From the NCBI RefSeq assembly GCF_003991135.1, contig NZ_CP016379.1, forward strand, positions 682,001-746,000: a stretch of DNA of 64,000 nucleotides. The letters are read 5' to 3'. This document shows, piece by piece, positions 32,991 to 61,485 of the stretch. Under the pieces are notes generated by a model, which saw only the letters and a list, made by a program, of their open reading frames with translations, was not told the origin of the DNA and did no database searches. Position 1 is the first letter of the stretch. The number at the start of each line of letters is the position of its first letter. The stretch is from Anoxybacter fermentans (GTDB taxonomy: Bacteria; Bacillota; Halanaerobiia; DY22613). The position numbers were made by a program, and so were the translations under genes.

Positions 32991-32996
32991 ATTTCA

Positions 32997-34090: not shown

Positions 34091-34101
34091 GCGAAAAAAA
34101 C

Positions 34102-43732: not shown

Positions 43733-43840
43733 AAAAAACACCCTTTCAGTAGATGTTATTAGTAAAGATTCTATAGATGATTTAATTTTCCTTCCTGGGA
43801 AGGAAAAAAGTCCAGGCTGTTGTGCCTGGCTTTTTTATTG

Positions 43841-44251
43841 GAAGTCTCCTGCTTAGTGGAGTGTAGGTTGTAACGATCTCCGAGTTGAACAGGTTAATTA
43901 ATACTGATGCTAAGTTTCAGTCTCCTACTTAGCGGAGTCTAGATTGCAACAAAAAAACAGTAATAATAAAAATTGGGTTCACTGTCTTTCAGTCTCCTAC
44001 TTAGTGGAGTGTAGGTTGCAACAATAAATGAGTTTAAAAGAAAAGATCGTGATTATTGGTGAGTTTCAGTCTCCTACTTAGCGGAGTGTAGATTGCAACG
44101 AAAATATAGACTTTGAGCAAAAAAGATTGAAATTTTTGTTTCAGTCTCCTACTTAACGGAGTCCAGATTGCAACAAGATTTAAACATCCGCACAAAATGG
44201 GACATCTGTTTTAGGTTTCAGTCTCCTAGCTAACGGAGTCTAAGTTGCAAC
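43841..44251 (-). CRISPR. Array, family A, 6 repeats
   Basis: Repeats at 43841-43874 (degenerate, ends GGTTGTAAC), 43914, 43986, 44063, 44138 and 44215. Distal terminator at 43805-43837. Confidence 0.93.
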
Positions 44252-44490
44252 CGCAGTTTTTTGCCTGGACAAACCGCGTCATTTCGCCATTTTTGAACAG
44301 CCAAAACATCAATTTAAAGCCTTCAGTTTCGCAAATCGATTTTCTGCACAAAACCTTGGGGGATTTGCGAAACATGATCTGTAGAGGAGGTGTTGATTTT
44401 TTGTTTTTGGGGTGTTCTAGGCTTTCAGTCTCCTAGCTTTTTAAGGTTGTCATCGCGCCCCAGGGAAATTTGACTATCTAAGATCGACGA
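44252..44490 (-). promoter_or_regulatory. Family A leader fused to a family B leader end
   Basis: A leader from 44252 (CGCAGTTTTTTGCCTGGACA) with the inverted pair TTTCGCAAATC...GATTTGCGAAA, then half an A repeat (44422-44438, CTTTCAGTCTCCTAGCT) spliced directly to the distal 50 nt of a B leader (GGTTGTCATCG...CGACGAC). A clear recombination scar. Confidence 0.8.
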
Positions 44491-44758
44491 CTTCTAAATA
44501 TGTATTATTAGACAAAAAATGAAAAATTCCTCTTTTTAGAGAGTCCAGATCATAACCTAGGCAATTTTTATGATCACTGTTTAAAGAGGTAGAAAAAAAG
44601 GAGGACCAGCTGTAGCACCTGGTCCTTTGCATTAGGAGTAATCTGTTTTCTTTTTTTAAAGTTATTCCCACGATGACACAAGACTTCGGTCTTCTGCTAT
44701 CTGAGTTAAATTGCAACCACCAGTGGGGACTGGCGGTGGATCTCGTGTTTAGGAAGTA

Positions 44759-45398
44759 CTTTCAGTCTCCTACTTAGCGGAGTCTAGATTGCAACCCTCT
44801 TTAATGGATGATTGGTGGTGGGACAAAGAGAAAGTTTCAGTCTCCTAGCTAACGGAGTCTAGATTGCAACAAAGCGAACTGGTGGAAAACGGTGGCAGCA
44901 AGACTGTCAGTTTCAGTCTCCTACTTAACGGAGTCTAGATTGTAATTGCAGTTTGTGGCCTGAGCTTCATAGGTAGCTACAAACCTAGTGCTGGAACAGC
45001 TTTCGTTGGAAAAGCTGTATATGAGTTTCAATTTCTTTTAGGTAGACTACAAACAAAAGGGTAAAAAATGATGTTTACCCAAACGTAAAGGTGTTTCAAT
45101 TCCTCATAGGTAGGCTACAAACGTGTGGAGAACACACCCGATTTCAAAACTTTTCAGGGAAAGGTTTCAATTCCTTATAGGTAGGCTAGAAACATTTGTA
45201 GCTTTGCGGGATGGTCAAATTACTCAATTTGAGTTTCAATTCCTTATAGGTAGGCTAGAAACCAGATTATTAGCTATGCCTAAAGAAGTGTTCTTTAAAA
45301 AGTTTCAATTCCTTATAGGTAGGCTACAAACTAAAAGAAATAGAATTTAAAGAATTTTACACAGAAAAGTTTCAATTCCTTCTAGGTAGGCTACAAAC
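44759..45398 (-). CRISPR. Composite array: A x3, B (1 partial + 6)
   Basis: A at 44759, 44834 and 44910 (last ends GATTGTAAT); truncated link; partial B 44965-44984; B at 45025 (variant TTTCTTTTAGG), 45093, 45164, 45233, 45302 and 45369. Confidence 0.94.
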
Positions 45399-45563
45399 CC
45401 ATTTAAATGGCGTAAATAAAGGGCTTGCTAGATTAAGGAAAATCATTATCAGGACAACTTTTGGATGTAAAAATAGAGACAACCCTTGAAATATCAACAA
45501 ACCTGCACATTTTAAGTTTGTCGTCGCACCCCAGGGAATTTTGCACTATCTGAGGTCGACGAC
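45399..45563 (-). promoter_or_regulatory. Family B leader, copy 6
   Basis: 165 nt, canonical; box at 45599. Confidence 0.85.
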
Positions 45564-45850
45564 ATTCAATTATTAAAAATTTCTCTTTCTAAACATATAT
45601 TAGACAAAAAATGAAAAATTCCTCTTTTTCGAGAGTCCAGATCATAAACTGGGCAATTTTTTATGGTCTACATGTGAGGTAGGGAAGAGGGAGGACCAGG
45701 CGTAGCACCTGGTCCTTTGCATTAGGAGTAATCTGTTTTCTTTTTTTAAAGTCATTCCCGCGATGACACAAGATTTTCGGTCTTCTGCTTATCTAAGTTA
45801 AATTGCAACCACCAGTGGGGACTGGCGGTGGATCTCGTGTTTAGGAAGTG

Positions 45851-46624
45851 CTTTCAGTCTCCTACTTAGCGGAGTCTAGATTGTAACAGGCTCCCGTGGA
45901 AACCAGGAGCAAAGCCCGACTATTCGTTTCAGTCTCCTACTTAACGGAGTCTAGGTTGCAACTCAAAATCGCCAAAGCAGTACGTATCAAAGGTTTTCAA
46001 CGTGTTTCAGTCTCCTAGCTAACGGAGTCTAGATTGCAACCGCAGTTTGTGACCAGAACGATTAGTTTCACGCCTTGTTTTAGTGGAACTTGCATTCAAA
46101 CTCGCGCGGGCTTCAAACCAGTAGGCTGGTGTGAAATAGAGTTTCAATCCTTGTTTTAGTGGAACTTGCATTCAAACTGGAGCTATTTTGATGGCAGAGG
46201 AAGGGCTTGTTGAGGTTTCAATCCTTGTTTTAGTGGAACTTGCATTCAAACACCATTGAAGAGTTAGACGAACTAAAAAAGGATGGTACGTTTCAATCCT
46301 TGTTTTAGTGGAACTTGCATTCAAACATTAGAAGAACCATACATCAAAGATATTGACGGTGTGTTTCAATCCTTGTTTTAGTGGAACTTGCATTCAAACA
46401 ATGCCTGTTTTTCCTTTCGCACTTATCGCAGTTTTGAATAGTTTCAATCCTTGTTTTAGTGGAACTTGCATTCAAACTCTAACGAGATTGAACATGGAAA
46501 TATACTATACTTGTTTCAATCCTTGTTTTAGTGGAACTTGCATTCAAGCCCGGTATCCCTCCGGAACACCGTTCTCAAGCAGTATTTGTTTCAATCCTTG
46601 TTTTAGTGGAACTTGCATTCAAAC
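45851..46624 (-). CRISPR. Composite array: A x3, C x8
   Basis: A at 45851, 45926 and 46004; link CGCAGTTTGTGACCAGAACG; C at 46065, 46141, 46215, 46290, 46363, 46441, 46513 (ends CATTCAAGC) and 46588. Confidence 0.95.
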
Positions 46625-46860
46625 CCGTCGTCATTCAAAATTGGCGATATTTCAAGCTTTATCCCACTTTAGTTAGAAAATAAATCGCCTTTCTAATCAG
46701 CAAATTTTGGCCCAAATCAGCCGTTTTTTAGCATTTTGCCGTAAAATTTCACCTTTGAAAATCGCAGTAATCAAGAGAATTTGCGAGCTAATTTTTTCTA
46801 ATCGTGATTTCCATTATTTTACTCCAATAATTTTTTTCTATCACCCCTTTCTATTTAAAT
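46625..46860 (-). promoter_or_regulatory. Family C leader, copy 2 (236 nt)
   Basis: Near-identical to copy 1 (same CCGTCGTCATTCAAAATTGG start), followed by GTTAGACAAAAAATG. Confidence 0.82.
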
Positions 46861-46988
46861 AGTTAGACAAAAAATGAAAAATTCCTCTTTCTAAAAGAAG
46901 CCCAGATCACAACCAGGGCAATTTTTATGATCAACGTGAGAGGTAGGGAAGAGGGAAAGCCAGACTATTGCGCCTGACCGTTTTTATT

Positions 46989-47095
46989 GGGGTCTCCTAC
47001 TTAGCGGTGTGTAGGTTGCAACGCTCGAATTAAACCAGATTTCCATTACGGACAGCAAGTTTCAGTCTCCTACTTAACGGAGTCTAGGTTGCAAC
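46989..47095 (-). CRISPR. Array, family A, 2 repeats
   Basis: Repeats at 46989-47022 (partial) and 47059-47095, separated by the spacer shared with 40313-40348. The surrounding terminator and distal repeat are also identical to the 40.2-kb cassette, so this is a truncated duplicate of it. Confidence 0.92.
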
Positions 47096-47215
47096 CGCAG
47101 TTGGTTGACTGGACAAACCGCATCATTTCGCCATTCTTTAACAGCTAAAAAGCCAATTTAAAACTCCCAGTTTCGCAAATCGATTTTCTGCACAAAACTC
47201 TGGGGGATTTGCGAA
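47096..47215 (-). promoter_or_regulatory. Family A leader, copy
   Basis: CGCAGTTGGTTGACTGGACA start, inverted pair TTTCGCAAATC...GATTTGCGAAA (near 47171-47217). Confidence 0.78.
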
Positions 47216-47264
47216 AGCGATCTGTAAGGAGGTGTTGATTTTTTTGTTTTTGGGGTGTTCTAGG

Positions 47265-47916
47265 CTTTCAGTCTCCTGCTTAACGGAGTGTAGGTTGCAA
47301 CGAACGAAGACGAATAAGGAATGCCTGCAGAGCATATATCCAGTTTCAGTCTCCTACTTAGTGGAGTCTAGGTTGCAACACCATTCGCGGAGTAGGAGCT
47401 GTCGCGAAATTTGTTTTCTTTCAGTCTCCTACTTAGCGGAGTCTAGGTTGCAACATGCTATACCTATGTGTTTGAGATCTATCGAGTTTTAAAGTTTCAG
47501 TCTCCTACTTAACGGAGTCTAGGTTGCAACATATTATTGAACTATTAGAAGAATATTTTGAAAAAATGTTTCAGTCTCCTAGCTAACGGAGTGTAGGTTG
47601 CAACGGCAAACTGTATTGGACAGATGGAGAAATTCCAACAGTTGTTTCAGTCTCCTACTTAGTGGAGTTTAGGTTGCAACCGCAGTTTGTGGCCAGAACA
47701 ATTAGTTTCATGCCTTGTTTTAGTGGAACTTGCGTTGCTTATATAGGGCTGTTTCAAATCCTGATAGGTAAGCTACAAACGAGGCATATAGCCCCCGCAC
47801 TAGAGTCGGAAAAATATAGTTTCAATTCCTTCTAGGTAGGCTACAAACATTGTTAATGCTTCCAATGTATTAATATCACATAACATGTTTCAATTCCTTA
47901 TAGGTAGGCTAGAAAC
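47265..47916 (-). CRISPR. Composite array: A x6, C fragment, B x3
   Basis: A at 47265, 47343, 47418, 47494, 47568 and 47644; link; C fragment 47705-47735; junction TGCTTATATAGGGCT; B at 47751 (variant GGTAAGCTAC), 47819 and 47887. Confidence 0.94.
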
Positions 47917-48081
47917 CCATTTAAGTGGCGTAAATAAAGGGCTTGCTAGATTAAGGAAAATCATTATCAGGACAACTTTTGGATGTAAAAATAGAGACAA
48001 CCCTTGAAATATCAACAAACCTGCACATTTTAAGGTTGTCGTCGCGCCCCAGGGGTTTTTGCACTATCTGAGGTCGACGAC
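47917..48081 (-). promoter_or_regulatory. Family B leader, copy 7
   Basis: 165 nt, canonical; box at 48115. Confidence 0.85.
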
Positions 48082-48365
48082 AGTCGATTATTAAAAGTTT
48101 CTCTTTATAGATTATTAGACAAAAAATGAAAAATTCCTCTTTCTAGAAAGAAGAAAACAGCTCAGGTCATATCCTGGGCAATTTTTATGATAAACGTGTA
48201 AAGAGATAAAAAAGGGAGGACCAGCTGTAGCACCTGGTCCTTTGCATTAGGAGTAATCTGCTTTCTTTTTTTTAAAGTTATTCCCGCGATGACACAAGAC
48301 TTTCGGTCTTCTGCTTATCTGAGCCACCAGTGGGGACTGGCGGTGGATCTCGTGTTTAGGAAGTA

Positions 48366-48913
48366 CTTTCAGTCTCCTAGCTAACGGAGTCTAGGTTGCA
48401 ACCACGGTGGCCAGAATAACTAGTTTCACGCCTTGTTTTAGCGGAACTATCATTCAAACTTTGTCAACCCGCCTGTTAGTATAGGTGGGTTTTTGTTTCA
48501 ATCCTTGTTTTAGTGGAACTTGCGTTGCTTATATAGGGTTGTTTCAAATCCTGATAGGTAGGCTACAAACCTGAAAGTGTCCCACGACGATTATGCAATT
48601 AAAACTGTGTTTCAATTCCTTCTAGGTAGGCTACAAACTTATCGAAAATGGCCAATTGAGTGGGGAGTTAGTCGAGTTTCAATTCCTTCTAGGTAGGCTA
48701 CAAACAAGAAAATTTAGAAGACCTAACTATTCCATTTGACCCGTTTCAATTCCTTCTAGGTAGGCTAGAAACGGGACGTATTCACTCTCAATATCATGTT
48801 CTGGATATCAAGAGTTTCAATTCCTTAGTAGGTAGGCTACAAACTTTTAAATAAAATTAAAGAATGGCCGGTTGATTATGTGTGTTTCAATTCCTTATAG
48901 GTAGGCTACAAAC
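48366..48913 (-). CRISPR. Composite array: A x1, C x2, B x6
   Basis: A at 48366-48402; C at 48423-48459 and 48495-48525 (truncated) around the recurring hairpin spacer; B at 48541, 48609, 48676, 48743, 48814 (31 nt, one inserted base) and 48884. Confidence 0.94.
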
Positions 48914-49078
48914 CCATTTAAATGGCGTAAATAAAGAGCTTGCTAAATTAAGGAAAATCTTTACGAGCATAACTCTTGAATGCCGAAATAGAGATAATCC
49001 TTGAAATATCAACAAACTTGCACATTTTAAGGTTGTCGTCGCGCCCCAGGGGTTTTTGCACTATCTAAGATCGACGAC
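48914..49078 (-). promoter_or_regulatory. Family B leader, copy 8
   Basis: 165 nt, canonical; box at 49095, then an extended -10 TGGTATAAT (49131-49139) pointing right toward the next two genes. Confidence 0.85.
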
Positions 49079-49130
49079 TTTTAAATATGTATTATTAGAC
49101 AAAAAATGAAAAATTCCTCTTTTGAAAATA

Positions 49131-49155
49131 TGGTATAATTAAGCACGAACGCCTG
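49131..49155 (+). promoter_or_regulatory. Extended -10 promoter of the 49-51 kb gene pair
   Basis: TGGTATAAT followed by CACGAACGCCTGAAG. The same TGGTATAAT plus CGAAC layout stands at 38544-38570 and 60090-60120. Confidence 0.5.
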
Positions 49156-49338
49156 AAGCTTTAAATACAATCCTACGTGTTATCGGAAATTTAAGTTTTT
49201 AGATTATTGGATGAAAAGATTAATGATTTTCATGTGAAAAAGCAGGTATTTCGGAAAATAATGGCGAAATTATTTTTATATAACATTAATGTATTGGAGA
49301 ATATAGGTAATAAATTTAGGGCAAGGAGGAGATTGTTT

Positions 49339-49992
49339 ATGAAACAGAAATTTTTGCCGCTTTTTATTAAAGTAGATTTTAGGCTTGATATTATAAAGTT
49401 ACGAGAATTAGATGAAAATATTTTTACAAAGATAAAAAATAAATATGGCTTTAATACTCTTGAAATTAATAAGGATGAGGTTATATTACGCGGTGGTTTT
49501 CCTATGTTTTCATGTATATTTTCCGAAGAAAGTATACAGATTGTAACTTTTACTTCTGACATACAAACGGCGATTGATAGTATTATTGATTTAGTTAACC
49601 AAATAAATATTTTGGCTGAGATAGAAATTCAATATATTTCTTATATTGAAATTGCTAATTTATTAAAATTTCAAGACAATAAAGATTTGTTTGGGTTTTT
49701 TGTCAACTGTAAAGATTATAGTGATGGAGTAGAGATAAGTGGTGCATATTTAACATTAGATACTATAGATGGCAAGAAAAATATTAAGTATATTTTTAAA
49801 TTTGAAGACGAAAAAGGATTTTCTGCAATTGCCTTAAAGGCATTACTTAATTTTAAAGATGACATAGAATTAAAAGGATTGTTAGAACATAATATTAAAT
49901 ATTTACAAGAAAAAATGACTTACTTTTTAAGTACACGGAGTGGTAAATTTCTACTCGGTGTGGGGGTGAATAAAATTGAACAAAAACGTTGA
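49339..49992 (+). CDS. Unknown 217-aa protein, first gene of the holin-like pair
   Basis: Start at ATG 49339, eight bases after AAGGAGGA; the upstream in-frame TTG at 49207 has no site. A mixed alpha/beta soluble protein (FIKVDFRLDIIKLRELDENI, a hydrophobic middle FPMFSCIFSEESIQIVTF, and a helical C-terminus). No motif recognised. It overlaps the next gene by 17 bases, so the products probably work together. Confidence 0.6.
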   Translation: MKQKFLPLFIKVDFRLDIIKLRELDENIFTKIKNKYGFNTLEINKDEVILRGGFPMFSCIFSEESIQIVTFTSDIQTAIDSIIDLVNQINILAEIEIQYISYIEIANLLKFQDNKDLFGFFVNCKDYSDGVEISGAYLTLDTIDGKKNIKYIFKFEDEKGFSAIALKALLNFKDDIELKGLLEHNIKYLQEKMTYFLSTRSGKFLLGVGVNKIEQKR

Positions 49993-50791
49993 TTACTTAC
50001 AAGATTATTACAGCTTTTTAGGTTGTGCAAAGGAGATATTTGAAGCGAAGAAGATCGAAAATGCGATAGATGAATTATTAAAAAATGCTATGTCGCTTCA
50101 TAATATGATTTTTAATGTCGATGAAGAAGAAAAGAAGAATATTCATCAAGGTTATTTAAGTGATTTGGAAACCGTATTGCCTTATGTGGAATTAACATAT
50201 GAATTAACATATGATGAATTATATAAAAATAAAGCTATAAAGCCAGCAAGTTCACGCAATAGTTTTCATATATTATACCAACCAAAAAGAAAGGTTAGGT
50301 ATATAATTATGAACTTCTTTAGTGGTTTTCCACTTGTACAATTGGGAGAAATTAAGCATGCTTGGAATAACTTTATTGAATTTCGCACAGCAAAATTATT
50401 TTTCGCATTTTTAGGAACTATTTTAACATTTTTGGTTGGTACTTTTTCAATTCACCATTGGACATTATTTATAATGACAATAATACATCTTTTAACTAGA
50501 CTCATGGCAAATAGATATAGAAATCAGGATGATTATGTTCATTGTTATAGAAGTATTCAATTATTCGCTTGGCCTTACATGTTATTGGTTTTAGGAAATT
50601 TTTTAAATTATAGTATAACGATTACTGGCTTTCCAGAGGATACGTTTTTTATTTTCTGGGTATGGTGGTTAATTTGGTCAGAATTGAAAGGGATTGTGGA
50701 AAATGCTAAAGTCGCGAATCTACCTATTCCACCAATGTTAGAAGAAATTATAAACAAATCAAAAGATAAAAATATCGGAATGCCTTTATAA
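49976..50791 (+). CDS. Protein with C-terminal holin-like membrane domain
   Basis: 271 aa, TTG start after GGGGGTGAATAAAA. The N-terminal 115 residues are soluble and helical. Residues about 130-240 have three to four transmembrane helices, and the end WSELKGIVENAKVANLPIPPMLEEI closely resembles the C-terminus of the phage holin family 4 (SIxENAxxxGLPxPxxL). A soluble sensor-like part joined to a pore-like membrane part is typical of abortive-infection effectors. The function is inference; it could also be a plain membrane protein. Confidence 0.65.
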   Translation: MNKNVDYLQDYYSFLGCAKEIFEAKKIENAIDELLKNAMSLHNMIFNVDEEEKKNIHQGYLSDLETVLPYVELTYELTYDELYKNKAIKPASSRNSFHILYQPKRKVRYIIMNFFSGFPLVQLGEIKHAWNNFIEFRTAKLFFAFLGTILTFLVGTFSIHHWTLFIMTIIHLLTRLMANRYRNQDDYVHCYRSIQLFAWPYMLLVLGNFLNYSITITGFPEDTFFIFWVWWLIWSELKGIVENAKVANLPIPPMLEEIINKSKDKNIGMPL

Positions 50792-50871
50792 CAAAAATCA
50801 TAAAGTTAGGAAAGGCGACGTTTTTCACCACCTTTCTAAGAAATTTATAGACAATGGTATATAATCAAAAC

Positions 50872-51120
50872 ATGATTAATATAAAGCATAGTAGAAATTA
50901 TGTGTACCAGACTGCCTATCACATAGTATGGATTCCAAAATATAGGCGAAAGATCCTTGTTGGTGATGTTCGGGAATTTACTATCAAAACCTTACACCAG
51001 ATTGCGGAGGATAAAGGTTTTGAAATTTTAGCTTTGGAGGTGTGTCCTGATCACATACATCTATTTGTCTCGATTCCTCCCGCTGTTTCTATTTCTCAGG
51101 CTGTTAAATGCTTTAGCTGA
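50872..51120 (+). pseudogene. tnpA: Truncated IS200 transposase TnpA (Y1)
   Basis: 82 aa from the conserved start MINIKHSRNYVYQ (the family is about 130-155 aa). The HUH motif is present (CPDHIHLFVS), but the frame stops at AVKCFS and the helix with the catalytic Tyr is missing. A frameshift near 51105 is likely; no homologous continuation was found before tnpB. Confidence 0.88.
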
Positions 51121-51177
51121 GACTATTAAAAATTACATTGAATTTGCACAAAATATTACTTCCAGGAGGTGAATTCC

Positions 51178-52263
51178 TTGCACATCACTCTCCACCATAT
51201 CAAGTTGTATAAACCTTCCAGGAATAAGCAGGAACAACTTAATCTACTTCTACGGAATTGGAACAAAGGCCTTAGATCAGCCTTGAAAATAATCAAACAC
51301 TGGGGATTTACTTCCTATACCAAAAGCCATAAGCATACTTATCGGGTATTGAGAAATAATTATTCTCTGCCTTCTCAGATTGCTGTAGAATGCAACCGTA
51401 AAGCTATTGAAATTTTCAAGGTCAATCAAATATCCCGGTTTAAGAGTAATGTGCCAGTAAGGTTAGTTAATGGTAAATCCTTTGCTATAATCGTAAAAAA
51501 CGGACGTTACTTTGCTAAAATATTGACACCTAATGGTAAAATTTTTTGTCCCCTGGCCTTTGGCAAATATCAACTTAATTATCTGGCAGATGAACGATAT
51601 ATTATTAAAACTGCTGATTTATACTTCTCTAAGGGCGAATGGTATCTTAATCTGGTTCTGGAATACCAACAAAAGCAAATTGAACCCAAAACTGTTATGG
51701 GCATTGATCTGGGTATAGTTAATCTTGCTTCTGTGGCTGTGATTGACCAGGATAAAAACATTCTACATACTGAGATGTTTTCTGGTCGTGAGCTCAGATT
51801 CAAGCGCCTTCGCTACCGCCAAAAACGAAAATTGAAAAGTAAAAAGGCAGGCAGTCAGAAAATCTCTACTATCAAGGAAAATAGAATCTGCCGGGAAGTT
51901 AACTTCCATATCGCTAATCGAATTATCGAATTGGCAGCCAAAAACAACTCCTTGATTGTGTTTGAAAATTTAAAGAACATCAGAAGTAACATCACTAAAG
52001 AAAAAGATCGACTCTCAAATTATGAGAAAAACTCCTGGGCTTACTACCAGCTAAAAGAATTTGTCAAACACAAAGCCTGCCTGCACGGTATTCCAGTAAT
52101 TGAAATTAGCCCGTTCAAAACTTCTCAGATTTGTTCAACCTGTCAAGCCGAAGGCCAACGAATTACGCAAAGCCTATTCCTCTGCCCAAATGGGCACCGT
52201 CACAATGCCGATAAGAATGCCAGTATTAATATCGCTGTAAGAGGATTACAGCATGTGGGGTAA
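51178..52263 (+). CDS. tnpB: RNA-guided nuclease TnpB (IS605 OrfB)
   Basis: 361 aa, TTG start seven bases after CCAGGAGG. RuvC residues: Asp in VMGIDLGIVNLASV, Glu in LIVFENLKNI and Asp in RHNADKNASINIAVRG; the zinc ribbon is CSTC...CPNGH between the last two. The N-terminal wedge/REC-like part and length are normal, so it should be an active omega-RNA-guided endonuclease. It would keep the IS in place by cutting donor sites. Confidence 0.94.
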   Translation: MHITLHHIKLYKPSRNKQEQLNLLLRNWNKGLRSALKIIKHWGFTSYTKSHKHTYRVLRNNYSLPSQIAVECNRKAIEIFKVNQISRFKSNVPVRLVNGKSFAIIVKNGRYFAKILTPNGKIFCPLAFGKYQLNYLADERYIIKTADLYFSKGEWYLNLVLEYQQKQIEPKTVMGIDLGIVNLASVAVIDQDKNILHTEMFSGRELRFKRLRYRQKRKLKSKKAGSQKISTIKENRICREVNFHIANRIIELAAKNNSLIVFENLKNIRSNITKEKDRLSNYEKNSWAYYQLKEFVKHKACLHGIPVIEISPFKTSQICSTCQAEGQRITQSLFLCPNGHRHNADKNASINIAVRGLQHVG

Positions 52264-52440
52264 CCCACAGCCCTGCTGGTTTTAACCAGTGGGATAGGTT
52301 GAATTAGTCAACCAGCCTGCTTTCTTTCCCAATTCCTGAATCACCAGTATGTAGGATCGGGAAGGTGCAAACTCTTGAAATCAGGTTACACTGAGTGTGA
52401 CTATTGGTTTCAAGCTCCCGACTTCAGTCGGGAGAAGTTG
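52180..52440 (+). ncRNA. Predicted omega RNA at the 3' end of tnpB
   Basis: In this family the guide RNA covers the end of tnpB and the right end of the IS. The stretch has several hairpins (CCAGCAGG... region, CTCCCGACTTCAGTCGGGAG). The guide would be the bases just after the right end (TTGACTTTTAAGG...). Extent is estimated from family knowledge, not measured. Confidence 0.5.
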
Positions 52441-52442
52441 AC

Positions 52443-52814
52443 TTTTAAGGTGATTTTTATATACGAATAAATTGGTTACATCCGTATTTTTAATTTAATG
52501 CTTTCAAGATCAGTAAGTGTCCAGCTGGATTTAGTACTCTAATATTGTTTTTAATTGACATTAGATAATTAGGCTTTCTTACTAATATTGGAAATTATGC
52601 AATGAAAGATTTAAAATTTGAAATACAGGTCCTAACCAGGGCAATGTTATGATTGACATGTGAGGTAGGGAAAAGAAAAGACCAGGCTGTCACGCCTGGT
52701 CTTTTACTTATTAGATTGCAACCAGAAGAAATTGGCTGGGATAAGGAACCAGGAGATTTATGAACATGATCTGCAGAGGAGGTGTTGATTTTTTTGTTTT
52801 TGGGGTGTTCTAGG
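52443..52814. other. Gap between the IS and the next cassette
   Basis: Unique AT-rich DNA to about 52630, then cassette sequence: terminator 52676-52706 and the GGAGGTGTTGATTTTTTTG segment. No gene. Confidence 0.5.
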
Positions 52815-53721
52815 CTTTCAGTCTCCTACTTAACGGAGTCTATATTGCAACTGGCAGTTAACGCGGGAAGGATATATTAGGAAGGTTCCGTTTCAGTCTC
52901 CTAGCTAACGGAGTATAGGTTGCAACCGCAGTTTGTGGCCAGAACGATTAGTTTCACGCCTTGTTTTAGTGGAACTTGCATTCAAACAACTACATTGAAA
53001 ACTGCAAAGTGGATCCGCCATTCGAGTTTCAATTCTTGTTTTAATGGAATTTGGATTATGACGAGTTTAGGCCAGATGGTACGTTAAACCCAGAAGGGTT
53101 TCAATCCTTGTTTTAATGGAACTTGCATTCAAACTCTGGGCAGAAGAGCTGAAAAATGCAAAAGGCGCAGTGTTTCAATCCTTGTTTTAATGGAATTTGG
53201 ATTATGACTTTAATGATTTTTTACATTATTGCATTCAATGGAAGTTTCAATCCTTGTTTTAGTGGAACTATCATTCAAACATATGAAGTTAACTGTAGCC
53301 CTTCCCCCTAAAAAAATGTTTCAATCCTTGGTTTTAGTGGAACTATCATTCAAACTTAAATATTTTAGAACAATGGTATAATCAAGGAGTGTTTCAATCC
53401 TTGTTTTAGTGGAACTTGCATTCAAACTTGACAATGATGAAGGTCAAAGAATCGAATATGCTAGTTTCAATCCTTGTTTTAGTGGAACTATCATTCAAAC
53501 CATAAGAATTATTATCAAATTCTAAGAAGTATTAGGTTTCAATCCTTGTTTTAATGGAACTTGCATTCAAACAATGATCTTGCTTCTCTATATATAGAAA
53601 CTGGAGATTGTTTCAATCCTTGTTTTAATGGAACTTGCATTCAAACAATAGTTTTCCCCAGACCTACACTACTAATCTTTTTCAGTTTCAATCCTTGTTT
53701 TAATGGAACTTGCATTCAAAC
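52815..53721 (-). CRISPR. Composite array: A x2, C x11 (longest C array)
   Basis: A at 52815 and 52890; C at 52951, 53026 and 53172 (both with a variant 3' part, GGAATTTGGATTATGAC), 53098, 53244, 53318 (one extra G), 53391, 53464, 53536, 53610 and 53685. Several sub-variants of C (TTGCATTC, TATCATTC, TTGGATTA) are interleaved. Confidence 0.95.
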
Positions 53722-53958
53722 CCGTCGTCATTCAAAATTGGCGATATTTCAAGCTTTATCCCACTTTAGTTAGAAAATAAATCGCCTTTCTAATCAGCAA
53801 ATTTTAGCCCAAATCAGCCGTTTTTTAGCATTTTGCCGTAAAATTTCACCTTTGAAAATCGCAGTAATCAAGAGAATTTGCGAGCTAATTTTATCTAATC
53901 GCGATTTCCATTATTTTACTCCGATAATTTTTTTCTATCACCTCTTTCTATATAGATA
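53722..53958 (-). promoter_or_regulatory. Family C leader, copy 3 (237 nt)
   Basis: CCGTCGTCATTCAAAATTGG start; box follows at 53959. Confidence 0.82.
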
Positions 53959-54152
53959 ATTAGACAAAAAATGAAAAATTCCTCTTTTTCGAGAGTCCAG
54001 ATCACAAACTGGGCAATTTTTATCAACGAATGAGGTAGAGAAGAAGGAAGACCAGGCGAGCTAGCCTGGTCTTTTGGAATTTAGAAGCATTAAAGGCTTA
54101 TCAATCCTGAATAAAAGAATAAAACCAGATATTAGATCTGGTCAATATTAAA

Positions 54153-54539
54153 TTAGGATAGGTTTTCCTTTAGATAGAAAATATCTTCTTCATTTTGTAA
54201 TTCCTTGTGTTTGATAAAGGTAATAGTTTTGGAGATTTTATTGACTTTATCTGTCAGTTTATCAAGTTTTTCAGTTGTTGTAACCTTGAATTCAGTAAGA
54301 TCTGCAACTTGGTTGGAAATTACATCAACTTTTTTCTCGATGCGCTCCTGACTGGTTTTGAGTTCTTCAAGTTTAGATTGCATAACATTTTGATTAACTT
54401 CTAATTTTTCAATTTTTGCTTCTATTTTCTCAGTCCTTGAGTGCATTTTAACTTGATTAGCTTCTATTTCTTCAATCTTTGATTGCATTTTAACCTGGTT
54501 TTCTAAAATTTGGTGTAGAATTTTTTCGATGTTATCCAT
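54153..54539 (-). CDS. Coiled-coil protein 2 in a cassette gap
   Basis: 128 aa. Identical plan to the 43430-43732 protein, with an added block of about 28 residues in the coiled coil (MHSRTEKIEAKIEKLEVNQN); the last 60 residues are the same. AAAGGGTGTTTTT precedes the ATG. It occupies the same place in its cassette (after a C leader and a GACCAGGCGAGC terminator), so gene and cassette were duplicated together. Confidence 0.78.
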   Translation of the reverse strand: MDNIEKILHQILENQVKMQSKIEEIEANQVKMHSRTEKIEAKIEKLEVNQNVMQSKLEELKTSQERIEKKVDVISNQVADLTEFKVTTTEKLDKLTDKVNKISKTITFIKHKELQNEEDIFYLKENLS

Positions 54540-54646
54540 AAAAACACCCTTTCAGTAAATGTTATAAGAAAAGATTCTATGGATGATTTAATTTTCCTTC
54601 CTGGGAAGGAAAAAAGTCCAGGCTATTGTGCCTGGCTTTTTTATTG

Positions 54647-54886
54647 GAAGTCTCCTGCTTAACGGAGTATAGTTTATAACCGCAGTTGGTGGCCAGAATA
54701 ACTAGTTTCACGCCTTGTTTTAGTGGAACTTGCATTCAAACTTCCAGGTAATGTGGTTTTAATCAATTATAAGTACTAGTTTCAATCCTTGTTTTAATGG
54801 AACTTGCATTCAAACAGGCAATTCAAAAAGGAATTGCAGACGCTTTTCAGTTTCAATCCTTGTTTTAATGGAACTTGCATTCAAAC
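54647..54886 (-). CRISPR. Composite array: worn A x1, C x3
   Basis: A at 54647-54680 (ends AGTTTATAAC); C at 54705, 54779 and 54850. Confidence 0.9.
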
Positions 54887-55123
54887 CCGTCATCATTCAA
54901 AATTGGCGATATTTCAAGCTTTATCCCACTTTAGTTAGAAAATAAATCGCCTTTCTAATCAGCAAATTTTGGCCCAAATCAGCCGTTTTTTAGCATTTTG
55001 CCGTAAAATTTCACCTTTGAAAATCGCAGTAATCAAGAGAATTTAAGAGCTAATTTTTTCTAATCACGATTTCCATTATTTTACTCCGATAATTTTTTTC
55101 TATCACTTCTTTCTATATAGATA
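54887..55123 (-). promoter_or_regulatory. Family C leader, copy 4 (237 nt)
   Basis: Starts CCGTCATCATTCAAAATTGG; box at 55124. Confidence 0.82.
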
Positions 55124-55375
55124 ATTAGACAAAAAATGAAAAATTCCTCTTTTTCGAGAGTCCAGATCACAAACTGGGCAATTTTTATGATCACCGTTTA
55201 AAGGGGTAGAAAAAAGGGAGGACCAGCTGTAGCACCTGGTCCTTTGCATTAGGAGTAATCTGTTTTCTTTTTAAAGTCATTCCACGATGGCACAAGACTT
55301 TCGGTCTTCTGCTTATCTGAGTTAAGTTGCAACCACCAGTGGGGACTGGCGGTGGATCTCGTGGTTAGGAAGCAT

Positions 55376-56022
55376 TTTCAGTTTCCTACTTAACGGAGTA
55401 TAGGTTGCAACACGGCGGGCGGGACTTCGTGTATATGAGCAAAGAGCAGATGTTTCAGTCTCCTACTTAGTGAAGTCTACATTGCAACACTCAAGGAACT
55501 GATACGATAGAATTTAAAGCTACGTTGTTTCAGTCTCCTACTTAACGGAGTTAAGTTGCAATCAGAAGAAATTGGATGGGATAAGGAATATAAGCTTTTC
55601 TTTCAGTCTCCTAGCTAACGGAGTCTAGGTTGCAACATTCTCCAGAACCAGACACATGCTTTTCGTGCCAAACCAGTTTCAGTCTCCTAGCTAACGGAGT
55701 CTAGGTTGCAACGATGATGTATTACTGTCAAGGAAAGTCGATTTCTCAAATAGCGTTTCAGTCTCCTAGCTAACGGAGTCTAGGTTGCAACAAACAGCTG
55801 AGGAGTACATGAGAGAAAATGATTCATTCAGTTTCAGTCTCCTAGCTAACGGAGTCTAGGTTGCAACTCAGCAAGAAGAATCATTATCCCGAAGAGGGCC
55901 CTTTTGGAGGTTTCAGTCTCCTACTTAGCGGAGCCTAAATTGCAACTTACTTTGACTATCCATCAAGATACGCATCTGATGCAAAGTTTCAGTCTCCTAC
56001 TTAGCGGAGCCTAAATTGCAAC
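55376..56022 (-). CRISPR. Array, family A, 9 repeats (longest A array)
   Basis: Repeats at 55376, 55452, 55527 (worn), 55600, 55676, 55755, 55831, 55910 and 55986. The spacer at 55563-55599 nearly matches DNA beside the array at 33.7 kb. Confidence 0.95.
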
Positions 56023-56145
56023 CGCAGTTTTTTGCCTGGACAAACCGCGTCATTTCGCCATTCTTGAACAGCCAAAACATCAAATTAAAGCCTTCAGTTT
56101 CGCAAATCGATTTTCTGCACAAAACCCTGGGGGATTTGCGAAACA
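56023..56145 (-). promoter_or_regulatory. Family A leader, copy
   Basis: Starts CGCAGTTTTTTGCCTGGACA; inverted pair TTTCGCAAATC...GATTTGCGAAA near 56097-56143. Confidence 0.8.
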
Positions 56146-56193
56146 TGATCTGTAGAGGAGGTGTTGATTTTTTTGTTTTTGGGGTGTTTTAGG

Positions 56194-56551
56194 CTTTCAG
56201 TCTCCTAGCTAACGGAGTCTAGGTTGCAACCGCAGTTGGTGGCCAGAACGATTAGTTTCACGCCTTGTTTTAGTGGAACTATCATTCAAACTTTGTCAAC
56301 CCGCCTGTTAGTATAGGTGGGTTTTTGTTTCAATCCCTGTTTTAGTTGAATTTGCGTTCAAACCACTTGCTATGGCTTATTTAGTGCTGTTTTAATTCCT
56401 CATAGGTAGGCTACAAACAGTGAGTTATAATACCTCTGAAACTGCTCTAAAAGTGTTTCAATTCCTCATAGGTAGGCTACAAACCAGGAGGAGAATATCC
56501 AGAAGAAATACATGTTGGGGCGTTTCAATTCCTCATAGGTAGGCTACAAAC
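56194..56551 (-). CRISPR. Composite array: A x1, C x2, B x3
   Basis: A at 56194-56230; C at 56255-56291 and 56327-56363 (variant TTTAGTTGAATTTGCG) around the recurring hairpin spacer; B at 56389 (GTTTTAATTCC), 56455 and 56522. Confidence 0.92.
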
Positions 56552-56716
56552 CCATTTAAATGGCGTAAATAAAGGGCTTGCTAGATTAAGGAAAATCCTT
56601 ACGAGTATAACTCTTGAACGCTGAAATAGAGATAATCCTTGAAATATCAACAAACCTGTGCTTTTTAAGTTTGTCGTCGCACTCCAGGGGTTTTTGCACT
56701 ATTGAAGATCGACGAC
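56552..56716 (-). promoter_or_regulatory. Family B leader, copy 9
   Basis: 165 nt; box at 56752. Confidence 0.85.
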
Positions 56717-57017
56717 AGTTGATTATTAAAAATTTCTCTTTCTAAACATATATTAGACAAAAAATGAAAAATTCCTCTTTTTAGAAAGAAGAAAAACAGC
56801 CCAGATCATAACCTGGGCAATTTTTATGATCAACGTGTAAAGAGATAGAAAAAAAAAGAGGACCAGCTGTAGCGCCTGGTCCTTTGCATTAGGAGTAATC
56901 TGCTTTCTTTTTTTAAAGTTATTCCCGCGATGACACAAGACTTTTGGTCTTCTGCTTAGCGGAGTTAAATTGCAACCACCAGTGGGGACTGGCGGTGGAT
57001 CTCGTGTTTAGAAAGTA

Positions 57018-57054
57018 CTTTCAGTCTCCTAGCTAACGGAGTATAAGTTGCAAC
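57018..57054 (-). CRISPR. Single family A repeat
   Basis: One 37-nt repeat directly next to an A leader (57055); no spacer on its left. An array reduced to one repeat or a new acquisition-ready site. Confidence 0.8.
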
Positions 57055-57185
57055 CGCAGTTTTTGGCCTGGACAAACCGCGTCATTTCGCCATTCTTAAA
57101 CAGCCAAAAAGCCAATTTAAAGCTCTCAGTTTCGCAAATCGATTTTCTGCACAAAACCCTGGGGGATTTGCGAACGCGATCTGTA
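57055..57185 (-). promoter_or_regulatory. Family A leader, last copy
   Basis: Starts CGCAGTTTTTGGCCTGGACA; inverted pair TTTCGCAAATC...GATTTGCGAA. It is followed by AAGGAGGTGTTGATTTTATTG and a worn A fragment (57220-57245). Confidence 0.78.
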
Positions 57186-57263
57186 AGGAGGTGTTGATTT
57201 TATTGATGTTTTTGGCTTTCTGTTTCCTGGCTAATGGGATCCACACTGAAGCTAGTATTGTTT

Positions 57264-57834
57264 GGTTTTAATCCTGATAGGTAGGCTACAAACGTTTCGA
57301 ACGACATTTACACTGACGGTTTTGGAAGCAGTTTCAATTCCTCATAGGTAGGCTACAAACCCACAGCCGCCGATTCGCTCATCATGTGTCTCTTCGTAGG
57401 GTTTCAATTCCTCATAGGTAGGCTACAAACGCAATTACATTTGTGCTCATTTTGATATAGAAGGGTTTCAATTCCTCATAGGTAGGCTACAAACGCAATA
57501 AGTGTACTAAAGGCACTAGAAAGACTTGAAAGGTTTCAATTCCTCATAGGTAGGCTACAAACAAAATGAAAGTAGAACAGAATCAAGAAAGAGATTTATG
57601 TTTCAATTCCTCATAGGTAGGCTACAAACTCTTTTACTTCGTCCAAAGTTTCTTCTGCTTTCTCGTTTCAATTCCTTATAGGTAGGCTACAAACCAGGAA
57701 TTGATTACAGTCGAATAACAGCACATTCAAACTTGTTTCAATTCCTTATAGGTAGGCTACAAACTGGAGCAAATCACAGTTTTAAAACAAAAACTTGCGG
57801 ATTAGTTTCAATTCCTTATAGGTAGGCTACAAAC
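57264..57834 (-). CRISPR. Array, family B, 9 repeats (longest B array)
   Basis: Repeats at 57264 (worn), 57331, 57401, 57465, 57533, 57600, 57665, 57735 and 57805. The three leader-proximal repeats read CCTTATAGG, the rest CCTCATAGG. Confidence 0.96.
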
Positions 57835-57999
57835 CCATTAAAATGGCGTAAATAAAGGGCTTGCTAGATTAAGGAAAATCTTTATTAGAACAACATTAGA
57901 ATACCGAAATAGAGATAATCCTTGAAATATCAACAAACCTGCACATTTTAAGGTTGTCGTCGCACCCCAGGGGTTTTTGCACTACCGGGGATCGACGAC
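57835..57999 (-). promoter_or_regulatory. Family B leader, copy 10
   Basis: 165 nt, canonical; box at 58036, then the last cassette terminator at 58097-58123. Confidence 0.85.
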
Positions 58000-58215
58000 A
58001 CTTGATTATTAAAAATTTCTCTTTCTAAACATATATTAGACAAAAAATGAAAAATTCCTCTTTTTTTATGATCAACGGGAGAGGTAGGAAAGAGAGAAGA
58101 CCAGGCTGTCATGCCTGGTTTTATTTAGTTTTTTTTCAGGCCTAGCACTATGTGGATCTTCTGGTAAGTTTGGATCGAGCAATGAAATCAACCTCCTATC
58201 TTTTGTTATTACTTT

Positions 58216-58245
58216 GTTTCAATTCCTCATAGGTAAGCTATAAAC
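58216..58245 (-). CRISPR. Solo degenerate family B repeat downstream of an XRE gene
   Basis: GTTTCAATTCC...GGTAAGCTATAAAC, 30 nt, 48 bases after the stop of the XRE gene at 58293-58784 and on its coding side. No partner repeat within spacer distance. Confidence 0.8.
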
Positions 58246-58292
58246 CAGGCTCAGATTAGGAGAATGATTAATCTACATTTTGTAAGTTTTTT

Positions 58293-58784
58293 TTATTTTA
58301 TCTGTCGTTCTATGTATTCTAGAATAAGTTCTACTTTTTCAGAACTTATTGGAAGTTGTTCGAGATTATGTCTAATAATTCTTATGATTTCGTCATATGT
58401 CGATTCGATTTCAGTGGAATCTACGCCCAGAATATCAGCTATGCGTTGCATTTCTTCCCATGTCAGAGCTACAATTCCATCCTCGAAATCTGCTATCCGA
58501 AAAAAATCGATTCCTGTCTGTTCTGAAATGTCACCTACTTTAAGCCCCTTTTCGATTCGAAGTTGCTTGAATTTTAGTCCTAGATGTTGTGAAGAGCTGT
58601 TCAATAGTTCTTCAATTGGAATCTTTGAAACCTCAGAAAATTTCTGAAGAAATTTCATCGAAGGTGTTTTTTTCTGATTTTCAATTTGAGAGATATAACT
58701 TCCAGTATATCCCATTAATTCTCCAAGTTCATCTTGCGATAATCCTTTTTTAAGGCGAAAATTCAATATTTGTTGTCCAAGCAA
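58293..58784 (-). CDS. Double-XRE-domain regulator 3
   Basis: 163 aa, TTG start seven bases after GAGGTG and six bases after the stop of the upstream regulator. HTH 1 is at residues 5-58 (LSQDELGELMGYTGSYISQIEN) and HTH 2 at about 68-120 (KVGDISEQTGIDFFRIADFEDG), with a helical tail. Two helix-turn-helix units in one chain suggest binding to a bipartite operator. Third gene of a leftward operon; its target may be the CRISPR leaders or the element's own promoters (inference). Confidence 0.85.
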   Translation of the reverse strand: MLGQQILNFRLKKGLSQDELGELMGYTGSYISQIENQKKTPSMKFLQKFSEVSKIPIEELLNSSSQHLGLKFKQLRIEKGLKVGDISEQTGIDFFRIADFEDGIVALTWEEMQRIADILGVDSTEIESTYDEIIRIIRHNLEQLPISSEKVELILEYIERQIK

Positions 58785-58790
58785 TGTTTT

Positions 58791-59375
58791 TCACCTCTGG
58801 GTGTATTTAGTTTCAATCCTAGTCTTGGTGGAATGTGGATTATAACTTTTTTGGTTATCATTTAATTTTTTCACTTCGTTTTCAAGAAAATTACGTAGCA
58901 TGTTTATTTTTTTGGCTTGTAGGCCTAATTTTGTTGCTAGATCAAGAATTTTTTGAATTATATGTTCAGCAGAGTGCAGAAACGGTGGTTCTGTGATATT
59001 AAGATAGTTACCTATTGTCTGCAGTTCTGCTGGTGTAAGTTCAACTTCCCCCAATAGAGCATTTGCTAACCGAAAGTAATCCATGTCTAATTCATCTGCC
59101 AGTTGAGCTTCAGAGAGATTATATTTTTGCAATGCTTCCGAAATAGTTTTTCCAATTTCCGAAGCACTATAGGGACTTACAAAAAAGACTGCAGGATCTA
59201 CTTCGTATAGATCAGCAAACATTCCGAGATCCTCCGCGCTAATTCCCCGTGTAGATCTTTCTTTATTACTTACCCAGCCTGCGCTTCGCCCTAATGCCTT
59301 TCCAACTTCTTCTTGTGACCATCCTCGTTCTTTTCGGAGTTTCCTGAGTATTTTATGGGCATCTGAACGAAACAT
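58791..59375 (-). CDS. Double-XRE-domain regulator 2, reading into a CRISPR repeat
   Basis: 194 aa, ATG after GGAGGCATAAAT. HTH 1 at residues 4-60 (WSQEEVGKALGRSAGWVSNKER); a second, weaker HTH-like domain at 72-128 (SEAQLADELDMDYFRLANALLG). The last dozen residues (HSTKTRIETKYTQR) are translated from a degenerate family C repeat at 58810-58846 that forms the end of the gene. Middle gene of the operon. Confidence 0.82.
   Translation of the reverse strand: MFRSDAHKILRKLRKERGWSQEEVGKALGRSAGWVSNKERSTRGISAEDLGMFADLYEVDPAVFFVSPYSASEIGKTISEALQKYNLSEAQLADELDMDYFRLANALLGEVELTPAELQTIGNYLNITEPPFLHSAEHIIQKILDLATKLGLQAKKINMLRNFLENEVKKLNDNQKSYNPHSTKTRIETKYTQR
58810..58846 (-). CRISPR. Solo degenerate family C repeat inside the end of an XRE gene
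   Basis: 37 nt, GTTTCAATCCTAGTCTTGG...GGATTATAAC, about 8 changes from the family consensus. In minus-strand sense it starts GTTATAATCC, with a TATAAT. Confidence 0.8.
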
Positions 59376-59435
59376 ATTTATGCCTCCTATTTTTCTTCTT
59401 TACTTGGTGGAAGAAGTAGAGGAGTGGGGGAGATA

Positions 59436-59472
59436 CTTTCAAGCTCCTACTTAGCGAAGTGTAGATTATAAC
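59436..59472 (-). CRISPR. Solo degenerate family A repeat over the stop of an XRE gene
   Basis: 37 nt, CTTTCAAGCTCCTACTTAGC...AGATTATAAC. The TAA stop of the gene at 59466-59996 lies within its last bases. In minus-strand sense it opens GTTATAATC. Confidence 0.8.
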
Positions 59473-59996
59473 TTATTTGTTTTTAAGCAATCATTAATAA
59501 ATTCTACTACGAGGTGTATTTGATTATCGGTAAGTCCAAGCGACTTACATGAATTAATTATTCGTGAAACATTGAATTCATAGCGACAAAAAAAATAATT
59601 TATGTCTATACCGAAGGCATCTGCAATTCTTTCTAATTCTTCTTTAGAGAGTTCAATTTCTCCGTTTTCAGCGCGACCAATTCGGAAAAAATCAACTCCA
59701 GATCGATCGCGAAGTTCTCCTATACTCCATCCTCTTTTTTCACGCAAAGCTTTTATTTCTCTCCCAACTATTTCCTTATCGTTATCCTCAGTATTCAAAA
59801 AATATGTGAAATCGACACCGAAAAAAGAAATCAATGCAAGATAGTTTTCGAGAGAAGGTTTTCTCTCACCATTTTCAAGTTGACTGATATATGAACTGGA
59901 GGTTCCTATTCCTTCTCCTACTTCAGCCTGTGAAAGATTTCTTCTTTTTCGTTCTTCCCGTAGCTTCGTCCCTAGCTGATGAGTCAAGAAACGCAT
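59466..59996 (-). CDS. Double-XRE-domain regulator 1
   Basis: 176 aa from ATG 59996 (GAGGGGG upstream; a TTG at 60017 would add seven residues). HTH 1 at residues about 8-62 (LSQAEVGEGIGTSSSYISQLENGERKP given in part: SQAEVGEGIGTSSSYISQLE) and HTH 2 at about 73-130 (WSIGELRDRSGVDFFRIGRA). First gene of the leftward three-regulator operon. Its upstream DNA (60040-60068) is the same ATTAGACA...GAAAAATTCCT box that stands beyond each CRISPR leader, so its own promoter and the array promoters probably share a regulator. Confidence 0.86.
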   Translation of the reverse strand: MRFLTHQLGTKLREERKRRNLSQAEVGEGIGTSSSYISQLENGERKPSLENYLALISFFGVDFTYFLNTEDNDKEIVGREIKALREKRGWSIGELRDRSGVDFFRIGRAENGEIELSKEELERIADAFGIDINYFFCRYEFNVSRIINSCKSLGLTDNQIHLVVEFINDCLKTNKL

Positions 59997-60039
59997 TTCC
60001 TTGAAAAACCCCCTCAATTATATTTCCTAACTATTTATA

Positions 60040-60068
60040 ATTAGACAAATACTGAAAAATTCCTTTTT
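60040..60068 (-). promoter_or_regulatory. CRISPR-leader-type box upstream of the XRE operon
   Basis: ATTAGACAAATACTGAAAAA and TTCCTTTTTT; the cassette version is ATTAGACAAAAAATGAAAAA plus TTCCTCTTT. On the minus strand it reads toward the XRE genes exactly as the cassette copies read toward their leaders. Confidence 0.7.
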
Positions 60069-60382: not shown

Positions 60383-61372
60383 ATGAGTTACGAAGAGGCT
60401 AAAAGTCATTTTGATTCTGAAAATTATGAAAAAGCTATTGAGCTCTTTTCAGCGATGCAAGTAGAGTGTGAAATGCGAGGGGATAAGGAAGGTGCGGAGA
60501 TTGCAAGAAGAGAACTGGGAAGGTCATATTTTAGATTAGAGAAATATGGTGAAGCTGAAGAACATTTTTCTCAGTTGTTTAAAAATACACGTAATGATAA
60601 AATTAAAGATTATTGCTTAACAATGATTGCAACGATAAAGGCAACAAAAGATGATTACACCAATGCATTAAAAATTCTCGATAAAATTACACCTACTCCT
60701 ATTAATCTAATCAATAAAGTTTTTATTCTTTATTACCTAAAAAAATATGATGGTATAGACGAAGCTGCACACAGAGCGTTAACTATTATTGATCAACTTA
60801 AAGAATTTGATTTGTCAAATGATCTATTAAGTAAATTTAAACAAGCTGCTGGATTAATTTATAGTATAATGGGGAAAAGAGATAAAGGTCTAATATATTT
60901 AAAGGAATCTTTAAAATATACTAACAATAATGTAGAAAAAAGTAGGATATATAATGATATTGCAGAAATTTATATAGAAATGGATAACTTTGAAGAGGCT
61001 GAAAAAGCATTACTGAATGCAAAAAAACTCATGAAATCTAGTTCAAACAAGTTTACAAAAGCAACTAATTTAAAACTTTTTGGAATTCTTAATAAAAAAA
61101 GAAAAAATTTTGAAATTGCTTCAAAGTACTTATCTGAAGCTTTGGTATTAATGCAGGAATATGATGCTGTTAAACATCTTGCTGAAATAAAGTTTTATTT
61201 GGCTGATGTAAAATTTTCTAAAATTAAAACAAATAAGATGTACGAAATATATCAAGGTGCAGAAATATATGCAGAAGGTGTCTCGAATGAAAAAAGGTTG
61301 GAGGGGGTGAACATAAAAAATGCGCAAATTGTTGACAGTATTGATGGTAGTACTGATTTTGGTGGCAGCTAA
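60383..61372 (+). CDS. RRNPP/Rap-like TPR receptor without HTH
   Basis: 329 aa. Helical throughout, with six or more TPR units (EEAKSHFDSENYEKAIELF, REELGRSYFRLEKYGEAEEHF in part, IYNDIAEIYIEMDNFEEAEK, LFGILNKKRKNFEIASKYLS). It lacks an N-terminal XRE domain, so it would act like Rap proteins, by binding another protein, rather than as a repressor itself. AAAGGGG precedes the ATG. The last 53 bases overlap a small secreted-peptide gene, the classic receptor-peptide cassette arrangement. Partners may be the double-XRE regulators on either side (inference). Confidence 0.8.
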   Translation: MSYEEAKSHFDSENYEKAIELFSAMQVECEMRGDKEGAEIARRELGRSYFRLEKYGEAEEHFSQLFKNTRNDKIKDYCLTMIATIKATKDDYTNALKILDKITPTPINLINKVFILYYLKKYDGIDEAAHRALTIIDQLKEFDLSNDLLSKFKQAAGLIYSIMGKRDKGLIYLKESLKYTNNNVEKSRIYNDIAEIYIEMDNFEEAEKALLNAKKLMKSSSNKFTKATNLKLFGILNKKRKNFEIASKYLSEALVLMQEYDAVKHLAEIKFYLADVKFSKIKTNKMYEIYQGAEIYAEGVSNEKRLEGVNIKNAQIVDSIDGSTDFGGS

Positions 61373-61454: not shown

Positions 61455-61485
61455 AACTGGCATGGTATTGACAAAATATGTTAAA

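What the first reader, a model, noticed from the sequence alone, without database searches (positions are those of the whole stretch)
58216..59996. Three tandem XRE regulators, each ending in one degenerate CRISPR repeat of a different family
Regulator 1 ends in a family A repeat (59436-59472), regulator 2 in a family C repeat (58810-58846, translated as its C-terminus) and regulator 3 is followed by a family B repeat (58216-58245). Three genes, three families, one repeat each is unlikely by chance. The solo repeats could make crRNA-like or tracr-like regulators, be Cas6 cleavage sites that destabilise each mRNA, or match each regulator to one array family.
Basis: partly seen in the sequence, partly recalled or inferred. 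Interest (0 to 1): 0.9.

Follow-up and report, generated by a model that had tools for sequence, protein, structure and literature searches.

The report
CRISPR repeats punctuating prophage regulator operon
A prophage packed with CRISPR arrays carries three regulator genes driven by the same promoter-like motif as the arrays and separated by single CRISPR repeats, an arrangement that the host's own gene for the repeat-cutting enzyme Cas6 also shows, which suggests that Cas6 cuts these messages and thereby controls the regulators.

Summary
Three solo repeats (A 59436-59472, C 58810-58846, B 58216-58245) score far above any background match and lie sense to three XRE genes, one at or after each gene end. 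The region belongs to an 80.4-kb prophage (60-bp exact att repeats, integrase, terminase, portal) carrying about 150 cas-less CRISPR repeats. Two new facts change the picture. (1) A 24-bp motif, GGAATTTTTCATTTTTTGTCTAAT, found with at most one mismatch only 18 times in the 3.56-Mb genome, marks 14 leader-type sites in the prophage, two leaders in the host type III-A locus, the XRE operon and one other prophage gene pair. (2) The host cas6b gene is built the same way: leader motif, repeats C and A, RBS, cas6b, then a solo C repeat holding its stop codon, as solo A holds XRE1's stop. Best reading: a leader-driven, repeat-punctuated operon whose mRNA carries Cas6 sites; cutting in solo C would leave XRE2 without a stop codon. 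Cleavage is inferred, not shown. Fossil arrays or anti-CRISPR solitary repeats remain possible. A one-to-one match of regulators to array families is unsupported (three different families by chance: about 21%). No orthologous operon was found for comparison.

The parts
60040..60064 (-). Leader-type promoter motif AGGAATTTTTCAGTATTTGTCTAAT upstream of XRE1
   Evidence: 18 sites with <=1 mismatch in the genome; two of them precede protein genes in the element (this and 38491), two lie in host III-A leaders, the rest in prophage leader-type sequence
59466..60017 (-). XRE1, double Cro/CI-type HTH regulator (start could be the downstream ATG near 59998)
   Evidence: Pfam HTH_3 twice, 1e-29
59436..59472 (-). 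Solo A repeat; contains XRE1 stop codon; handle CTTGAAAG is altered
58791..59375 (-). XRE2, HTH regulator whose last residues are read from the solo C repeat
   Evidence: Pfam HTH_3/HTH_31; alignment shows a tail beyond the family end
58810..58846 (-). Solo C repeat; predicted Cas6 cut 58818/58817 lies 24 nt before the XRE2 stop codon
   Evidence: cut position inferred from the 8-nt handle
58293..58784 (-). XRE3, double HTH regulator
   Evidence: Pfam HTH_3 twice
58216..58245 (-). Solo B repeat, 47 nt after XRE3
   Evidence: Rfam RF01315
58100..58119 (-). Hairpin that closes the operon; the same element lies near the ends of several array blocks
57786..58065 (-). B leader of the neighbouring array block, with the same motif at 58035
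32792..57834 (-). CRISPR region: composite A/B/C arrays; no cas gene recognised among the ORFs scanned inside it
   Evidence: about 147 array repeats plus the 3 solos; Pfam on the larger ORFs inside it
31424..32575 (-). Tyrosine integrase of the prophage; attL 31283-31342
   Evidence: 60-bp exact repeat at genome 793613-793672
60383..61372 (+). TPR protein, divergent from XRE1, overlapping a 44-aa secreted-type peptide ORF (about 61320-61455)

Best explanation
XRE1-2-3 is a transcription unit built like a CRISPR array block: it starts at the motif that also marks the B and C leaders, carries one sense-strand CRISPR repeat after each gene (A, C, B), and closes with the hairpin found near the ends of array blocks. 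The repeats most likely act as Cas6 recognition sites in the mRNA. Host Cas6 would split the message; cutting solo C removes the XRE2 stop codon and should switch XRE2 off, while XRE1 and XRE3 stay translatable. Regulator output would then depend on Cas6, and because leaders and operon share a motif, the operon would be co-expressed with, and possibly control, the arrays. Shown by sequence: motif, orientation, repeat identity, layout, same layout on cas6b. Inferred: promoter activity, Cas6 cleavage, nonstop XRE2, control of the arrays.
For: Solo repeats are unmistakable and sense. Last 8 nt of solos B and C (ATTGAAAC, the crRNA handle) are intact. Motif: 18 sites with <=1 mismatch in 3.56 Mb, all but two in prophage or host III-A leaders or leader-type sequence; shuffles of the window give 0; no <=2-mismatch match in 58 other genomes of the class. 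Host III-A locus: motif at 644990, C repeat 645250, A repeat 645333, RBS, cas6b 645423-646097, solo C repeat 646086-646122 containing the cas6b stop; the protein is Cas6b (PF17262 1.6e-33, PF17955 7.8e-28, PADLOC Cas6 5e-71). Block-terminal hairpin after solo B. Gaps between the genes (90 and 6 nt) fit one operon.
Against: No RNA data. Solo A has changed bases at the predicted cut (AC to CT, not seen in the A matrix copies) and a weaker predicted hairpin (-2.8 against -7.4 kcal/mol), so it may not be cut. Which Cas6 serves families A, B and C is unknown. Nine cas6b homologues in other genomes with a full 3' end have no terminal repeat, so the layout is local to this genome. No orthologous operon shows that the repeats are kept by selection.
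Confidence: 0.5

Rival explanations
1. Fossil or captured-gene reading: genes were inserted into, or grew between, repeats of old array blocks; the solos are relics without present function.
For: Solos are degenerate; many other degenerate repeats lie at array ends; the host III-A locus also has genes placed next to leaders and repeats; solo A ends in GAAAG like leader-distal A repeats; solos A and C share a similar 5' half and upstream bases.
Against: The sense orientation, one repeat per gene end, and intact handles in B and C are not expected of random decay; stop codons lie inside the repeat in both cas6b and XRE1.
Confidence: 0.27
2. RNA anti-CRISPR (Racr): each solo is a repeat mimic that sequesters Cas6/Cas7 of the matching host system.
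For: Solitary repeats in phages act as Racrs (PMC10651486). Five other IMG/VR contigs carry a single C-type repeat core; the neighbouring element remnant has a solo C next to a promoter-like sequence.
Against: The same prophage carries about 147 array repeats of the same families, which would already compete for Cas proteins; the solos sit inside an mRNA, with no separate strong promoter found beside them.
Confidence: 0.12
3. DNA-level elements: the repeats are operators or -10 boxes (solos A and C contain TATAAT) for the XRE genes.
For: GTTATAATC is shared by solos A and C; the remnant solo C follows TTGACA at 16 nt from its TATGAT.
Against: No -35-like hexamer at 16-18 nt before the TATAAT of solos A or C was reported; solo B lacks TATAAT; the matches run through the repeat 3' end, the part that matters for RNA processing.
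Confidence: 0.06
4. One regulator per array family: each XRE controls the leaders of the family whose repeat follows it.
For: Three families, three genes; the operon shares the leader motif.
Against: B and C leaders and the operon share one motif, giving no family-specific site; three different families has p about 0.21 by chance (from counts).
Confidence: 0.05

Closest known systems
Solitary repeat units / Racr RNA anti-CRISPRs (PMC10651486)
   Same: Single CRISPR repeats in a prophage, matching repeat families of the host
   Different: Here they lie inside a regulator operon and beside full arrays of the same families; the published units were searched in intergenic DNA away from arrays
Virus-borne mini-CRISPR arrays (SPV1/SPV2, PMC6858448)
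   Same: cas-less arrays with leaders resembling the host's, on a virus; stand-alone repeats also seen there
   Different: About 147 repeats of three families over 25 kb, plus repeats punctuating protein genes
Host type III-A locus with cas6b (this genome, 636-646 kb)
   Same: Leader motif, repeats before the RBS, solo repeat holding the stop codon
   Different: Single gene, two repeats in front, less degenerate repeats
Peptide-TPR-regulator (Rap/Phr- or arbitrium-like) modules
   Same: XRE operon divergent from a TPR gene with a short secreted-type peptide; the host has similar XRE/TPR pairs
   Different: No HTH found in the TPR protein; signalling untested

Membership tests
CRISPR repeat families A, B, C | Sequence match above background | tested here: met
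   scores 33.3 / 41.7 / 28.2 against best background -14.0 / -1.4 / -4.6
CRISPR array | At least two repeats with regular spacers | tested here: not met
   solos are 564 and 589 nt apart with genes between
Solitary repeat unit (SRU) | Single repeat on a mobile element, not part of an array | tested here: inconclusive
   single and on a prophage, but solo B lies 381 nt from a B array and solo C overlaps an ORF
Racr | Expressed RNA that inhibits CRISPR by binding Cas6/Cas7 | not testable with these tools
   needs RNA and interference assays
Cas6 mRNA processing site | Sense orientation, intact 8-nt handle and cut site | tested here: inconclusive
   met for B and C; altered handle and cut-site bases in A
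Cas6 mRNA processing site | Cas6-dependent RNA ends | not testable with these tools
   no RNA-seq
XRE / Cro-CI type regulator | HTH_3 domain | tested here: met
   two HTH regions in XRE1 and XRE3, one strong in XRE2
Prophage | att repeats, integrase, structural genes | tested here: met
   60-bp exact repeat, integrase, terminase and portal

The most novel reading that the evidence does not exclude
CRISPR repeats are used as Cas6-operated switches in messenger RNAs: host cas6b regulates itself through the repeat at its 3' end, and a prophage has borrowed leader-type promoter and repeats so that its regulators sense Cas6, linking phage regulation (and perhaps peptide signalling) to type III CRISPR activity.
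Probability: 0.3. Interest if true: 0.85.

Novelty: new variant of a known kind. Interest (0 to 1): 0.62.

Why it matters
Solitary CRISPR repeats in phages are known as RNA anti-CRISPRs, but repeats that punctuate coding genes, under a leader-type promoter motif and mirrored on the host's own cas6b, were not found in the papers searched here. If Cas6 cuts these messages, repeats would be regulatory RNA elements as well as immune memory, giving a phage a direct read-out of CRISPR activity. The claim makes a simple testable prediction at four sites in one genome.

Tried and rejected
Orthologous operons: none in GTDB contigs, IMG/VR (only this prophage's own record, IMGVR_UViG_2837169743_000001), phages or plasmids. 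XRE paralogues with repeats: none. cas6b homologues with terminal repeats: none of nine with a full 3' end. Cas1: no PF01867 hit in the genome; cas3: no hit above the cut-off. Spacers against the XRE operon: none seen in the printed blastn output, which was cut in the middle; one C spacer has an 18-nt match to a host XRE paralogue. Sigma-70 promoter upstream of XRE1: none at the motif; the motif's spacing resembles sigma-H promoters (own knowledge, untested). Single-repeat folding gave weak structures that do not decide.

Full report
1. Observation. The window is G000:C1:682001-746000 of a 3.56-Mb single-contig genome. Three repeat families fill 32.8-57.8 kb: A (37 nt), B (30 nt), C (37 nt). 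I take the minus strand as the transcribed one, because the repeats then end in ATTGAAAC or ACTGAAAC and the conserved leader sequences lie at the high-coordinate side. About 150 repeats are found, of which three are separated from the arrays by genes. These are solo B 58216-58245, solo C 58810-58846 and solo A 59436-59472. Leave-one-out matrix scores are 41.7, 28.2 and 33.3; the best background matches score -1.4, -4.6 and -14.0.

2. Genes. XRE1 (59466-60017), XRE2 (58791-59375) and XRE3 (58293-58784) are minus-strand HTH_3 proteins, XRE1 and XRE3 with two HTH regions each. XRE2 and XRE3 are 27% and 32% identical to XRE1, and a search with XRE1 gives 19 matches in this genome. XRE1's stop codon lies in the 5' end of solo A. 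XRE2 runs through solo C: family members end about 20 residues earlier, so its tail is read-through of repeat DNA. The gaps between the genes are 90 and 6 nt.

3. Setting. A 60-bp perfect direct repeat at 713284-713343 and 793613-793672 encloses an integrase, the CRISPR region, the XRE operon, a TPR gene with a short secreted-type peptide, Cro/excisionase-like genes, a replication protein, terminase and portal. This is an 80.4-kb prophage; part of it is in IMG/VR. No cas gene was recognised among the prophage ORFs scanned. The genome holds a type III-A locus at 636-646 kb, two III-C-like Cmr loci, a III-F-like locus and a separate Cas6 at 856 kb, but no Cas1 and no cas3 above cut-off.

4. The shared motif. 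Comparing the XRE promoter region with the arrays showed a 24-bp motif, GGAATTTTTCATTTTTTGTCTAAT. In the window it has 16 matches against none in shuffles. In the whole genome it occurs 18 times with at most one mismatch: 14 leader-type sites in the prophage (nine B leaders, four C leaders and one B-leader-like site at 44507), two leaders in the host III-A locus, the XRE operon (60040) and a two-gene unit with a DUF6575 protein (38491). It is absent from 58 other genomes of the class at two mismatches. The XRE operon therefore belongs to the set of leader-motif units of this genome. The operon also ends with the hairpin that lies near the ends of array blocks. It has the outline of one array block, with genes in place of spacers.

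5. The same device on host cas6. At the III-A locus the order is motif (644990), C repeat (645250-645286), A repeat (645333-645369), RBS, an ORF (645423-646097), then a solo C repeat (646086-646122) whose positions 10-12 are the ORF's stop codon. The ORF is Cas6b. XRE1's stop is likewise inside solo A. In nine homologues from other genomes with a full 3' end, cas6b has no terminal repeat. So two separate units in this genome, one in the host and one in the prophage, combine the leader motif with a gene and a solo repeat at its stop codon.

6. Mechanism. The solos are sense in the mRNA. Solos B and C keep the full 8-nt handle; solo A does not, and two of its bases near the cut were not seen in the matrix copies. 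If Cas6 cuts at the handle, the XRE1 message stays whole, XRE2 loses its stop codon (24 nt downstream of the cut) and XRE3 keeps its ribosome site on a short leader. I judge Cas6-dependent control the most likely function (0.5). Promoter activity, cleavage and its effect are inferred.

7. Rivals. Relics of old blocks (0.27) fit the degeneracy and the general habit of this genome of placing genes beside leaders. RNA anti-CRISPRs (0.12) fit the literature (PMC10651486) and the single C-type repeats found in five other viral contigs, but sit oddly in a phage that carries about 147 array repeats of the same families. Operators or -10 boxes (0.06) and one-regulator-per-family (0.05) have little support; three solos drawn at random would all differ in about 21% of cases.

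8. Limits. No orthologous operon was found in the collections searched, so selection on the solos could not be tested. No expression data are available.

Noticed in passing
window 31283-32575 and 32792-57834: An 80.4-kb prophage devotes about 25 kb to some 147 cas-less CRISPR repeats of three families arranged in tandem A-C-B blocks with repeated leaders, in a genome with no Cas1 hit.
   Followed up: partly
L117:590-1722 (genome 644990-646122): Host cas6b is flanked by CRISPR repeats, with its stop codon inside the downstream solo C repeat.
   Followed up: yes
window 36657-38515: A two-gene unit (148 aa plus a DUF6575 protein) inside the array region starts at the leader motif (38491); function unknown.
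   Followed up: partly
window 60383-61455: TPR protein with a 44-aa secreted-type peptide, divergent from the XRE operon; the host has several similar XRE/TPR pairs, some with peptides (L024, L028). Possible peptide signalling in the prophage.
   Followed up: partly
L040:9081-9117 (minus; genome 795081-795117): In a neighbouring element remnant a solo C-like repeat follows TTGACA with TATGAT inside the repeat, upstream of a broken integrase gene.
   Followed up: partly
L094:12545, L095:1718, L096:877, L097:1673, L098:73: Five other viral contigs carry a single C-type repeat core; in L095 and L097 it is enclosed by an inverted repeat.
   Followed up: partly
window 42780-42815: A C-array spacer shares 18 of 18 nt with a host XRE paralogue (L021:3024-3041) and 19 of 20 with L094.
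   Followed up: no
window 50854-52263: An IS200/IS605-type transposase pair (TnpA-like and TnpB-like) lies inside the array region.
   Followed up: no
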